Source of the DNA: Sphingomonas koreensis
Lineage (GTDB): Bacteria > Pseudomonadota > Alphaproteobacteria > Sphingomonadales > Sphingomonadaceae
Assembly: GCF_002797435.1 (NCBI RefSeq)
Contig: NZ_PGEN01000001.1
Location: forward strand, 620,001-684,000
Length of the DNA stretch: 64,000 bases
Reading direction: 5' to 3'
Of the stretch, positions 55,109 through 59,388 are shown piece after piece. The position numbers and the translations under genes are program-made. A model generated the notes under the pieces. That model was not told the origin of the DNA, made no database searches, and was given only the letters and a program-made list of their open reading frames with translations. The stretch's first letter is position 1. Every line of letters begins with the position of its first letter.

Positions 55109-56173
55109 TCAGGCGGCGGTTTCGCGCGCGGCCTTCGCCTTGCGCCGGCGGCGCCAGTGGAGCAGTCCCAGCCCGGCCGCGCCCAGCGCGAACAGGCCGA
55201 TCGTCTCTTCGGGCACCGGCGTCGGGTTGCCCCCGCCGCTGCTGCCGCCACCCGGATTGGTCGTCGGCGGCACATAATTACCGTCATAGCCGCCCGAGAG
55301 CCTGCCATTCTGCTGCAGGCTGCCGAACACGCCTGAACCATCGATGCTGTTGGAAACCTGGCCGATCGCCTTGGGCGCCAGCACAGATCCGCCCCACGCC
55401 GTCGAGATGGCGACGCTGGTGGCATCGGCGAAGTTCCAGATCACATTCTCGCCCAGCCCCTTGGTCCCGCCGAGGAAATTCTGGTTGAGCGCGATCGCCG
55501 ATCCGCTGACGTTGACGATCGCGGTCTCGGCGCCGTTCAGGTTGAACTTGATCTCGCTGATCTTGCTGAGATCGGCGCTGGTGATGTTGAACACCGCGAC
55601 GCCCTTGGCATCGGGCTTGGCGTCGAACGTGCCGCGGCTGCCGCTGACGGTGAAGCTGCTGTTCCCCGCCATCCCCTTCATGTCGGACGACAGGTTGGTC
55701 AGGCTCGACCCGAGCAGGCTCTTCTGTTGCTCCAGCCCCACGCGGAAGGCCGGGTTGGTGGTGTTGAGGCCCGAATTGACCGTGTTCTGGTTGACGTTGG
55801 TGTTGGAAATCCTGCCGCCGACCTGCACCGTCTGCGACGCCCCGTTGAGGTTGAAGCCGCTGTTGACGTTGCCGCCGATCGCCGCGCCCGACGCATTGTT
55901 GAGGTTCTTGTGCCCGCCATTGACGTCGCCGACCACGGTCAGGCCCGGCGTGCCGCGCGGCGAGGGCGCCGGGGTGCGGACCTGATAGTCCGACGAGCCG
56001 CCGCTCAAATTGCCGCCGACAAAGGTACGCCCTTCCACCTGTCCGGCGGACTGCAGGTCGCCCAGCACGATCAGGTTCCATTCCTTCATCGCGTCGATGC
56101 CCGCGACCTGGGCGGATGCGGGCGTGGCGATGACCAGCGCGACGCCGACCGAAAGCAAATTACGAATACGCAT
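55109..56173 (-). CDS. Choice-of-anchor-A domain protein with PEP-CTERM-like tail
   Basis: A 354-residue exported protein. Signal peptide MRIRNLLSVGVALVIATPASA; then a choice-of-anchor-A type domain with the typical WNLIVLGDLQSAGQVEGRTFVGGNLSG start, Asn/Gly-rich middle, and VIWNFADATSVAISTAWGGSVLAPKA near the end. After a Pro/Gly/Ser linker (about residues 305-325) comes VPEETIGLFALGAAGLGLLHWRRRRK: a PEP-like motif (VPEE instead of VPEP), a transmembrane helix and an Arg cluster, the signal for exosortase processing. No exosortase gene is in the window. No obvious ribosome-binding site precedes the ATG. The role is unknown, perhaps cell-surface or biofilm related. Confidence 0.85.
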   Translation of the reverse strand: MRIRNLLSVGVALVIATPASAQVAGIDAMKEWNLIVLGDLQSAGQVEGRTFVGGNLSGGSSDYQVRTPAPSPRGTPGLTVVGDVNGGHKNLNNASGAAIGGNVNSGFNLNGASQTVQVGGRISNTNVNQNTVNSGLNTTNPAFRVGLEQQKSLLGSSLTNLSSDMKGMAGNSSFTVSGSRGTFDAKPDAKGVAVFNITSADLSKISEIKFNLNGAETAIVNVSGSAIALNQNFLGGTKGLGENVIWNFADATSVAISTAWGGSVLAPKAIGQVSNSIDGSGVFGSLQQNGRLSGGYDGNYVPPTTNPGGGSSGGGNPTPVPEETIGLFALGAAGLGLLHWRRRRKAKAARETAA

Positions 56174-56306
56174 AGGATAGCCAGTACCGCCCACAGGATG
56201 AACGATCCATTGACGCCCGGTTTCCCGGCATCCGCCGCACCAGCCTGCCGCCTCGCCCAGTTCATGACCGCTTCGAGAAACCATTTTCCTACAGCCTCGG
56301 TTTCGC

Positions 56307-56345
56307 GATATCTGGACCGTCCCATGATCGAACGGGACAGATATC
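56307..56345. repeat. Interrupted palindrome upstream of the choice-of-anchor-A gene
   Basis: GATATCT (56307-56313) and GTCCC (56319-56323) pair with GGGAC (56334-56338) and AGATATC (56339-56345); the left arm has a 5-base bulge and the loop is 10 bases. It ends six bases before the 11-bp repeat array. It may be an operator or an RNA hairpin flanking the array. Confidence 0.6.
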
Positions 56346-56351
56346 CTCCGC

Positions 56352-56527
56352 ATCGCAGCCGTGTCGCCTGTTCGTCGCGCCGGTGTCGCGTCAGCGTCGT
56401 GCGACAGTCCTGTGGGTGTCGCGCAACGGTCTCGCAGGCGTCGCCCCACTGTCGCGTGGCAGTCGCGTCAGCGTCGCGAAGGCGCCGCGTCGCGGTCCTG
56501 TCGCAGTCGCGTGACGGTCGTTTCGCC
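56352..56527. repeat. Tandem array of sixteen 11-bp units, consensus GTCGCGYNRSN
   Basis: Cutting the sequence every 11 bases from 56352 gives 16 uninterrupted units. Position 1 is G in 15 of 16, position 2 T in 15, position 3 C in all, position 4 G in 13, position 5 C in 12 and position 6 G in 12. Positions 7-11 vary, but position 9 is a purine in 14 of 16 and position 10 is G or C in 15. The units at 56385 and 56462 are identical (GTCGCGTCAGC). No gene, promoter or known family explains it. It lies in the 425-bp gap (56174-56598) between the choice-of-anchor-A gene and valS. The unit is too short for CRISPR; 11 bp is close to one DNA helical turn. Confidence 0.9.
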
Positions 56528-56562
56528 GGAAGAACCGGCGTTCTTGTTGAACTTCGCGAAGC

Positions 56563-56591
56563 GGCCCTTCCCCGCCAATCGGGGAAAGGCC
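56563..56591 (-). terminator. Hairpin after valS
   Basis: GGCCCTTCCCCG (56563-56574) and CGGGGAAAGGCC (56580-56591) flank a 5-base loop. In the valS transcript the single mismatch becomes a G-U pair, so the 12-bp stem is complete. It begins 8 bases after the valS stop. No U-run follows. Confidence 0.65.
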
Positions 56592-56598
56592 TCGGCGC

Positions 56599-59388
56599 TC
56601 AGCCCAGCCGACCCAGCGCCGCGCTCAGCCGCGCCGCCTCGGCCGATTTCTCGGCATGATCGGCACGCGCCTTCTCCACCGCCTCGGGCTTGGCCTTTTC
56701 GGCGAAAGCCGGATTGGACAGGCGCGCGTTCAGGCTGTCCCGCTCCTTCTCCGCCGCCGCGATCGCCTTGGTCAGGCGCGCGCGCTCGGCGTCGAGATCG
56801 ATCACGCCTTCGAGCGGAAGGACGAAGGTCGCCTCGTCCACCACGATCTGCAACGCGCCGCCTGCGGGGACGTCACCCTGTGCGCGATCGACGCGGGCGA
56901 GACGGGCGAGCGCCGGCTCCTGCCGGACAAGCTGCTCTTCGGTCTCGGCATGGGCATCGCGAACGAACAGCGGCAGACGCGCACCGGGGGGCACGTTGAG
57001 CTCGTTGCGCGCGGCGCGCAGCTCGCTCACCAGCCGGATCAGCCAGTCGATCTCCTTCGCCGCGTGCGAATCCAGCGCGCGGGCGTCCGCCATCGGCCAT
57101 TTCGCGGTGATCAGCGGATAGTCGGGGCGATCGCCCAGCTTCGACCACAGTTCTTCGGTGATGAACGGCATGAACGGGTGGAGCAGGACCAGGATCTGGT
57201 CGAGCACCCAGCCGGCAACGAGGCGGGTTTCCTCCGCACCCTCGGCACCCTCGGTCTGCAGGACCGGCTTGATCAGCTCGAGATACCAGTCGCAGAATCG
57301 GCTCCAGGTGAACTGGTAGATCGCGTTGGCCGCCTCGTCGAAGCGATGGTCGGCAAAGGCAAGGTCCATCGCCTGCACCGTCGTCACCGTCTCCGCGACG
57401 ATCCACTTGTTGACCGCGAGCGTCGCCACAGGCGGCTCGATATGCTCGCTGGCGCTGATCCCGTTGGACTGGGCGAAGCGCGCGGCGTTCCACAGCTTGG
57501 TCGCGAAGTTGCGATACCCCTCGACCCGCTTCTCATCCATCTTCACGTCGCGGCCCTGGCTCTCCATGGCGGCCATGAAGAAGCGCAGCGCGTCGGCGCC
57601 ATATTTGTCGATCAGGATCAGCGGATCGACGACATTGCCCTTGGACTTGGACATTTTCTGCCCATCCGCGGCGCGGACAAGTCCGTGGAGATACAGGGTC
57701 TTGAACGGCACTTCCTTCATGAAGTGCAAACCCTGCATCATCATCCGCGCATCCCAGAAGAACAGGATGTCGAAGCCGGAGATGAGCACGTCGTTCGGGT
57801 AGCGGCCGCCCAGCGTCGGGTCGGTCTCGTCGGGCCAGCCCATCGTGGCGAAGGGCCACAAAGCGGAGGAGAACCAGGTGTCGAGGACGTCTTCGTCGCG
57901 CTTGAGCGCAACGCCCTCTCCTGCCTGCGCCTGCGCCTCCTCCTCGCTCTCGGCGACGAAGATGCGGCCATCCTCGGCATACCAGGCCGGGATGCGGTGG
58001 CCCCACCACAGCTGGCGGCTGACGCACCAGGGCTGGATGTTCTCCATCCAGTTGAAATAGGTCTTTTCCCACGACTTCGGCACGACCTTGGTCGCGCCCG
58101 AGCGGACCGCCTCGATCGCGGGCTTGGCCAGCGTCGCGGCATCGACATACCATTGGTCGGTCAGCATCGGCTCGATCACCACGCCGCCGCGGTCGCCGAA
58201 CGGCTGCATGATCTGCTTGTCCTCGACCTGGATCATCAGCCCGTCGGCATCGATGTCGGCAACGACGCGCTTGCGCGCCTCGTAGCGGTCGAGCCCGCGA
58301 TAGGCGTCGGGCACCAGATTGAGGGTATCGACCTCGGCCGCGGTCCATGCGGCGCCGCCGGCGATCTCCTGCGCACGCGCCGCCGCCACGGCATAGGGCT
58401 CACCGTCCGCGCGCATCGCCGCATTCTCGTCCATCAGGCGATACATCGGGATGTTGTTGCGCTGCGCGACGCCATAGTCGTTCTCGTCGTGCGCGCCGGT
58501 GATCTTGACCGCGCCCGATCCGAAATCGGGATCGGGATAATCGTCGGTGATGATCGGGATCAGGCGGCGCAGCGCCTTGGGCCCGACCGGGATCTCGCAC
58601 AATTTGCCGACGATCGGGCGATAGCGCTCGTCATCGGGATGCACCGCGACCGCGCCGTCGCCCAGCATCGTCTCGGGCCGGGTAGTGGCGATCGAGATAT
58701 AGTCGCGCTCTTCCTCCAGCAGCACATTGCCGTCGGCGTCGCGCTCGACATAGGTGTAGGTCTCGCCGCCAGCGAGCGGGTATTTGAAGTGCCACATATG
58801 GCCCTGCACCGCGCGCGATTCGACCTCGAGGTCGGAGATCGCGGTCTTGAGGGCCGGGTCCCAGTTCACCAGCCGCTTGTCGCGATAGATCAGCCCCTGC
58901 TTGTGCAGGTCGACGAACACCTTGAGCACGGCCTTCGAAAAGCCCTCGTCCATGGTGAAGCGCTCGTTCGACCAGTCCATCGAGCAGCCGAGGCGGCGGA
59001 GCTGGCGGGTGATCGTGCCGCCGCTCTCTTCCTTCCATTTCCAGACGAGGTCGATGAAGTCCTCGCGCGAATAGTTGGTGCGCTTGTCCTGCCGCTCGTT
59101 GAGCTGGCGCTCGACCACCATCTGGGTGGCGATGCCCGCATGGTCTGTACCCACCACCCAGCGGGCGTCCTTGCCCTTGAGGCGGGCGTGACGGACGAGG
59201 ATGTCCTGCAGCGTGTTGTCGAGCGCGTGGCCGATATGGAGCGAGCCCGTCACGTTCGGCGGCGGGTTGACGATCGTCCAGGGCTCGGCGCCAGGGCGGT
59301 CGGGGCGGAACAGGCCGCCCTCCTCCCAATGCGCGTACCAGCGCGATTCGATTTCAGCCGGGTCGAAGGTCTTGGGAAGCTCGCTCAT
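56599..59388 (-). CDS. valS: Valyl-tRNA synthetase
   Basis: A 929-residue class Ia aminoacyl-tRNA synthetase, normal length for Val[20 protein letters not shown] holds the HIGH motif, [17 protein letters not shown] starts the connective/editing region, and [15 protein letters not shown] is the KMSKS loop. The C-terminal 60 residues ([20 protein letters not shown] onward) form the ValS coiled-coil arm that contacts tRNA. The [17 protein letters not shown] segment belongs to the CP1 editing domain that removes threonine. The gene lies 36 bp downstream of popZ on the same strand, the conserved order in alphaproteobacteria. Confidence 0.98.

What the first reader, a model, noticed from the sequence alone, without database searches (positions are those of the whole stretch)
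56352..56527. Sixteen-unit 11-bp tandem array with constant and variable halves
The gap between valS and a choice-of-anchor-A gene contains sixteen head-to-tail units of exactly 11 bp (GTCGCGYNRSN), with no insertions or deletions. Positions 1-6 are strongly conserved, while positions 7-11 vary except for a purine at 9 and G/C at 10. Passive slippage repeats would be uniform; a conserved half with a variable half suggests selection on the GTCGCG part, or on one site per helical turn. Possible roles: cooperative protein-binding array, nucleoid or polar anchoring site (popZ is 3 kb away), structured RNA, or a short-repeat array belonging to an unknown element. I know no described family with this form.
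Basis: partly seen in the sequence, partly recalled or inferred. Interest (0 to 1): 0.8.

Follow-up and report, generated by a model that had tools for sequence, protein, structure and literature searches.

The report
Dispersed 11-bp repeat-array element family
The array is one of eleven copies in this genome of an apparently undescribed intergenic element (start block, 11-bp repeat array, end motif) that related bacteria keep at the same gene neighbourhoods, and whose end motif changes in step at the copies of a genome, which hints at an unknown molecule that recognises it.

Summary
In detail: window 56352-56527 carries sixteen 11-bp units without indels (the first degenerate), far beyond chance. 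The genome has 11 such arrays; 14 of 121 sampled genomes of the genus have five or more pattern hits; relatives occur in Rhodospirillales-labelled MAGs. Sphingomonad arrays belong to a composite element: a head block in 43 of 54 loci, the array with core GTCGC, a spacer, and a tail direct repeat mostly in register with the array. Elements sit at orthologous loci across species, so they are old; yet in five genomes compared, tails are alike within a genome and differ between clades at one locus (80% versus 61% identity), which suggests a co-evolving trans-acting factor. In two sphingomonad genomes and in the Rhodospirillales MAGs an rRNA-type boxA lies upstream of the array; the window's own clade lacks it (0 of 32). 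Best reading: stand-alone, probably transcribed elements whose array is a multivalent binding platform. The core equals the Caulobacter SciP half-site, so a DNA-level SciP array is the main rival. There are no expression or binding data. A link to popZ is not supported.

The parts
56284..56294 (+). Head block B (TTTTCCTACAG), 68 bp upstream of the array
   Evidence: Matches CYKTCCTACAR at 10 of 11; block B in 13 of 54 sphingomonad loci, 0 of 108 control stretches
56308..56313 (+). ATATCT, 17 bp after TTTCCT: possible -10 element (by eye)
   Evidence: Sequence; the consensus sigma-70 scan found no promoter here, so this is inference
56307..56345 (.). Inverted repeat between head and array, 19-nt arms, 79% complementary
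   Evidence: I1
56352..56527 (+). Array of sixteen 11-bp units, core GTCGC
56528..56546 (+). 19-bp spacer between array and tail; its start overlaps a terminator-like hairpin at 56524-56540
56547..56562 (+). Tail TTGAACTTCGCGAAGC, a degenerate form of the genome's GTGAACTTCGTGAAC direct repeat
   Evidence: Read by eye and used; the automatic tail search missed it
55109..56173 (-). Neighbour: choice-of-anchor-A-like gene (name from the finding), start facing the head
56599..59388 (-). Neighbour: valS, 3' end facing the tail
   Evidence: name read from the translation and the finding

Best explanation
The array is the body of one member of a multi-copy family of stand-alone intergenic elements in sphingomonads, with relatives in Rhodospirillales. 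Each element has its own head block, most likely part of a promoter (inferred), from which the array strand is transcribed as an untranslated RNA of repeated GUCGC units (inferred); in several lineages an rrn-type boxA upstream of the array would let polymerase run through it protected from Rho (inferred from the known role of boxA). The in-register units act as a multivalent binding platform for a trans-acting protein, and the tail repeat is the site of a second, fast-evolving recogniser (inferred). Shown here: the family, its order head-array-tail, orthologous positions, constraint on GTCGC, within-genome likeness of the tails, boxA upstream of the array in some lineages. Not shown: transcription, product, partner, purpose.
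For: Eleven arrays in the genome. Head blocks A or B, never both, in 43 of 54 loci, controls 1 and 0 of 108. boxA-like YTTTGA 58-74 bp after head A in 25 of 31 fetched G106 loci; best upstream boxA match 10 or more of 12 in 3 of 4 (G127), 6 of 7 (G263), 5 of 6 (Asaia-labelled MAG) and 1 of 1 (L054) loci, other strand of the same stretches 0 of 18, 3' control stretches 1 of 18; the rRNA leader of G263 has the same motif. Orthologous loci. Tails 80% identical between loci of one genome, 61% at one locus between clades. Array-to-tail distance 19+11k exactly in 22 of 36 and within one base in 34 of 36.
Against: No transcript data. The window's clade has no boxA (0 of 32 loci; G003 0 of 2) and 11 of 54 loci have no head. 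No sigma-70 promoter by consensus in the window. No clear conserved RNA structure. SciP-like core and an 11-bp register suit DNA as well. The G106 and G263 copies are paralogues, so their counts are not independent.
Confidence: 0.42

Rival explanations
1. A DNA-level array: a helix-turn-helix protein, SciP (DUF1153) first of all, binds GTCGC half-sites head to tail in the 11-bp register and builds a nucleoprotein patch that silences, insulates or titrates.
For: The Caulobacter SciP half motif is GCGAC, i.e. GTCGC on the other strand (PMC4287350, passages). The array core is GTCGC. SciP is present in 16 of 16 genomes tested. Filaments on direct repeats are known for BldC (PMC5859096, abstract).
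Against: SciP is as present, and nearly identical, in array-poor genomes. A 5-mer is common everywhere. SciP does not explain the tail or boxA. The reported full SciP motif is an inverted, not a direct, repeat.
Confidence: 0.3
2. A modular interspersed repeat without cellular function (selfish or neutral), kept by slippage and by insertion into harmless gaps.
For: Uniform unit runs show slippage (e.g. L224). Divergent gaps are the rarest context, 7 of 53 sphingomonad loci. Losses occur (G042 at uvrB).
Against: Orthologous retention across species; constraint on one half of each unit; tails alike within a genome although heads are not.
Confidence: 0.16
3. A Rho-utilisation (rut) site: cytosines every 11 nt load Rho and end transcription.
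For: Regular C spacing of 11-13 nt is a rut feature (PMC6407284, passages); 13 of 14 Rhodospirillales arrays run towards a convergent gene.
Against: rut needs C above G; C/G is above 1 in 30 of 53 sphingomonad arrays (mean 1.10) and in 1 of 14 Rhodospirillales arrays (mean 0.79).
Confidence: 0.05
4. An ordinary minisatellite, or part of a coding sequence.
For: Many unrelated bacteria have uniform GTCGCG-N5 runs; 7 of 67 arrays overlap a coding-like ORF in a simple gene call.
Against: Variation sits mainly in one half of the unit; the element has a head and a tail. No frame is consistently open through array and tail: 23, 22 and 29 of the 36 loci testable.
Confidence: 0.03

Closest known systems
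STAR elements of staphylococci (PMC3532100; abstract and outline seen)
   Same: Interspersed intergenic direct repeats, variable copy number, differing interior sequence, many loci per genome
   Different: STAR loci differ between species (abstract); here loci are shared between species, with head, in-register tail and, in some lineages, boxA
TAACTGA direct repeats of Beggiatoaceae and others (PMC4679880; passages)
   Same: Many intergenic sets of short direct repeats, patchy across lineages, function unknown
   Different: Heptamers repeated without a variable half, mostly next to start codons; no head or tail described in the passages seen
SciP half-sites (PMC4287350; passages)
   Same: Core GTCGC / GCGAC
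   Different: Single or inverted sites at -60 to -90 of CtrA promoters, not long head-to-tail arrays
boxA-led transcripts: rRNA, suhB, CRISPR arrays (PMC5725501 and PMC12691694, passages)
   Same: boxA upstream of an untranslated or regulated RNA; CRISPR arrays are repeat arrays too
   Different: 11-nt units, no Cas link seen, and boxA only in some lineages of this family
BldC on direct repeats (PMC5859096; abstract); ParR/parC and StbA 11-bp-period plasmid sites (recalled, not checked)
   Same: Head-to-tail protein sites of variable number
   Different: No such protein identified here; no plasmid match
BOX elements of pneumococcus (recalled, not checked)
   Same: Modular head, n units, tail in intergenic DNA
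   Different: Unit of 11 bp with a constrained and a variable half

Membership tests
SciP-binding site | GCGAC/GTCGC half-site | tested here: met
   Core GTCGC kept at .81-1.00 in 457 units; motif from PMC4287350
SciP-binding site | SciP encoded in the genome | tested here: met
   PF06627 in 16 of 16 genomes, array-rich and array-poor alike
SciP-binding site | Measured binding by SciP | not testable with these tools
   No binding data
boxA (Nus) antitermination transcript | boxA upstream of the array on the same strand | tested here: inconclusive
   Met in G106, G127, G263, the Asaia-labelled MAG and L054; not met in the window's clade, 0 of 32
boxA (Nus) antitermination transcript | Transcription through the array | not testable with these tools
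   No RNA data
STAR-like interspersed element | Many intergenic copies with variable repeat number | tested here: met
   11 arrays in G000; about 4 to 19 units in the arrays listed
STAR-like interspersed element | Loci specific to one species | tested here: not met
   9 of 11 G000 arrays have an orthologous locus in another genome
Rho-utilisation site | C above G with regular C | tested here: not met
   C/G above 1 in 30 of 53 and 1 of 14 arrays
Known Rfam family | Match at gathering score over the array | tested here: not met
   Only a tRNA among 16 loci; two weak unrelated matches near the window array
Coding repeat | One frame open through array and tail | tested here: not met
   23, 22 and 29 of 36 loci in the three frames; 16 of 52 loci not testable, the window among them

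The most novel reading that the evidence does not exclude
A new class of bacterial element: a chromosomal family of repeat-array RNA genes, in some lineages led by an rRNA-type antiterminator, whose 11-nt GUCGC units form a multivalent scaffold and whose terminal repeat co-evolves across all loci with a dedicated, fast-changing recogniser.
Probability: 0.3. Interest if true: 0.85.

Novelty: new variant of a known kind. Interest (0 to 1): 0.68.

Why it matters
If right, it is an unrecorded layer of genome organisation or RNA regulation in a large group of bacteria: many loci per genome, inherited in place, with a recognition motif that the loci of a genome seem to change together. That concerted change gives a direct handle to find the recogniser, by comparing close species with different tails. 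It would also put the rRNA antitermination signal boxA in front of a repeat array that is not a CRISPR array.

Tried and rejected
popZ link: the other ten arrays of the genome lie elsewhere. Replication polarity: a bias of local skew (array strand C-rich in 8 of 11 G000 and 11 of 13 G106 loci) did not hold against 20 skew samples per genome: in G000 the array strand is leading in 5 and lagging in 6, G106 is mixed (my reading of noisy profiles). Phage or plasmid origin: 28 viral stretches hold the pattern; 13 are near-copies of one five-unit array; L345, L349 and L353 have varied units and were not followed up; no plasmid match to 56200-56600 with the low-complexity filter on. Coding repeat. 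Spacer hairpin: 927 of 1000 shuffles as good in the register tested; two other registers pair more (.55.52) but were not shuffled. Stem before boxA in G106: RNAalifold gives three pairs; a stem I proposed pairs 79.4% of cells against 75.9 in shuffles (1 of 500 as high), covariation 0.169 against 0.161 when slid by one column: suggestive only. Rho site. SciP presence or sequence as a marker of arrays: no difference. The tail pattern as a genome marker: all 30 genomes match and array-poor ones exceed the control too, partly coding DNA. No recurring neighbour gene was seen by eye; no family search was run on the flanking proteins. Papers: ten searches of the open library listed no paper that describes this element; only the listed rows were seen, and subscription journals are mostly not held.

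Errors made and mended: loci from the genome search are not re-oriented, so read the wrong side for minus-strand hits and mistranslated some SciP genes; redone. Outputs were cut; loci not seen there were analysed again. On recount the 3' control (1 of 18) was added and the DNA-repeat rival set to 0.16.

Full report
1. The observation. The sixteen 11-bp units are there, without indels, at 56352-56527. No shuffle of the window (60) or of the gap (2000) came near the score of 25.4; the maxima were 7.2 and 5.6. The first unit is degenerate.

2. It is a family. In the same genome (G000, one contig of 4.40 Mb) three GTCGCG spaced by 11 bp, with up to two mismatches, give 77 hits against 11 for the reversed control; they group into eleven arrays plus four isolated hits. 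Among 121 genomes of the genus, with up to one mismatch, 49 have a hit and 14 have five or more; the control gives at most two per genome. A class-wide sample of 385 genomes with exact matches finds only G000 and G263. Judged by eye, most are uniform slippage runs in unrelated bacteria; varied units occur in nine listed sphingomonad loci (for example Sphingomonas tagetis, S. lenta, Sphingobium naphthae) and nine loci of Rhodospirillales-labelled MAGs, six of them of one MAG labelled Asaia.

3. Anatomy. In 457 interior sphingomonad units the core GTCGC is kept at .81 to 1.00 per position, G6 at .75, a pyrimidine at 7 at .86 and a T before the core at .54; in 69 Rhodospirillales units the T is at .74 and the core at .91 to .99. 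The arrays were found by their likeness to GTCGCG, which inflates these values somewhat. Of 530 steps between sites in 53 sphingomonad arrays, 399 are 11 bp, 44 are 22, 16 are 21, 2 are 10, none is 12 or 23, and the rest are scattered (for example nine of 9, eight of 16, seven of 13). Upstream lies one of two head blocks, A in 30 and B in 13 of 54 loci, never both, 11 with neither; control stretches gave 1 and 0 of 108. The window has head B. After the array comes a spacer and then a tail of two direct copies, GTSARC-N3-GTSARC. A tail was found automatically in 36 of 52 loci; its distance from the array end is 19, 30, 41 or 52 bp in 22 and within one base of these in 34. At ispDF (L026, L237, L252) there is no tail, and the start codon lies inside the last unit.

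4. boxA. In G106, 25 of 31 fetched loci have head A followed at 58 to 74 bp by a boxA-like block, GCTCTTTGA in 22 of the 25. In the 250 bp upstream of the array the best match to a 12-base boxA is 10 or more in 6 of 13 G106, 3 of 4 G127, 6 of 7 G263, 5 of 6 Asaia-MAG and 1 of 1 L054 loci; the other strand of the same stretches never exceeds 9, and a 3' control stretch reaches 10 once, in G263. Of 12 matches to TGNTTGACATTGTGAA in G263, I read eleven: six precede GTCGCG arrays, four precede another inverted-repeat element and one lies in a gene. The rRNA leader of G263 carries the same sequence, GCTGTTTGACAAGTGAATA. That this is boxA of the Nus complex rests on recalled consensus; its role in rRNA, suhB and CRISPR arrays is from passages. 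The window's clade (G000, G046, G125, G042, G015) shows none in 32 loci, and G003 none in 2. For the stem before boxA, see Tried and rejected.

5. Inheritance. Comparison of flanks gives eleven clusters of loci shared between genomes, some linked by one flank only; nine of the eleven G000 arrays have a partner, among them the window's array, with 14 units at L230 in G046. Upstream of uvrB an array is present in 7 of 13 array-bearing and 0 of 16 array-poor genomes (one weak, G046); in the UvrB tree 11 of the 13 fall in one supported clade of 14, the label needing 6 changes against 9.8 in shuffles (4 of 500 as low). At udg the array is in 2 of 15 genomes searched, and in three more. So the elements are old and inherited in place, with losses: G042 kept the tail at uvrB but not the array. 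In G000, G125 and G015 the uvrB array follows a LexA-type box, GTTC-N7-GTTC (by eye; motif recalled).

6. Concerted tail. Using 34 tails of five genomes, picked by eye and verified as strings in the fetched DNA, tails at the same locus in different clades are 61% identical (29 pairs), at different loci of one genome 80% (112 pairs), at different loci of different clades 63% (346 pairs). One locus group there (WTPARQRIF gene) was joined by eye from two clusters; G106, G127, G066 and G103 were not included. In a cruder comparison of 60-bp tail regions all orthologous pairs, close genomes included, score higher (0.317) than loci of one genome (0.253), and other pairs 0.192; heads score 0.321 for orthologues and 0.101 for other loci of the same genome. 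Gene conversion of whole elements would homogenise heads too; a trans-acting recogniser that changed its taste explains the tail alone. This is inference, but it is the strongest hint of function.

7. Context. Orientation does not follow replication. Simple gene calls put a convergent gene after 13 of 14 Rhodospirillales arrays and a codirectional gene before 36 of 53 sphingomonad arrays; divergent gaps are rarest, 7 of 53. The gene calls are crude, loci are not independent, and gene names are read from translations without a family search.

8. Mechanism. Two readings stand. As RNA: head as promoter, boxA as antiterminator where present, array as a multivalent RNA platform. As DNA: GTCGC is the SciP half-site (PMC4287350), and a row of half-sites could seed a filament as BldC does (PMC5859096, abstract). 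I prefer RNA (0.42) over DNA (0.30) because boxA works only in a transcript and lies upstream of the array, on its strand, in two orders. The window's own clade lacks boxA, so for this copy transcription rests on the head alone, and the consensus promoter scan found nothing.

9. Known kinds. No Rfam family fits the arrays (window stretch and 16 loci). Ten paper searches listed nothing that describes it. It looks like a modular interspersed repeat, with features that STAR elements and, from recall, BOX elements lack. I file it as a new variant of a known kind, with a fair chance that it is a class of its own.

Noticed in passing
L168, L177, L181, L184 (G263): Four boxA-led elements that carry an AATAGGTTACC..GGTAACCTATT inverted repeat (partly degenerate) in place of a GTCGCG array.
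   Followed up: partly
L413, L419 (G106): Arrays that mix GTCGCG units with GTTACC units; the same GTTACC sequence occurs in the G263 inverted-repeat elements.
   Followed up: no
L224, L420, L416 (G106): Runs of identical units inside arrays, signs of recent slippage.
   Followed up: no
L238, L240, L241, L251, L253: A recurrent deviant unit GGTGTCAGCC inside arrays of G125 and G015.
   Followed up: no
window 56307-56345: Inverted repeat with 8-bp perfect outer arms between head and array; only its inner part is seen at the orthologous locus L230 (by eye).
   Followed up: partly
window 56556-56598: Inverted repeat just past the valS stop, perhaps the valS terminator; it overlaps the tail.
   Followed up: no
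L309, L310, L314, upstream of uvrB: LexA-type box GTTC-N7-GTTC ahead of the array, so the array may lie in the uvrB leader (motif recalled).
   Followed up: no
L056, L065, L075, L076, L084, L096: MAG labelled Asaia bogorensis shares unit type and boxA form with the Telmatospirillum-labelled MAG; the label may be wrong.
   Followed up: no
L345, L349, L353 (viral contigs): Short arrays with varied GTCGCG units in viral contigs.
   Followed up: no
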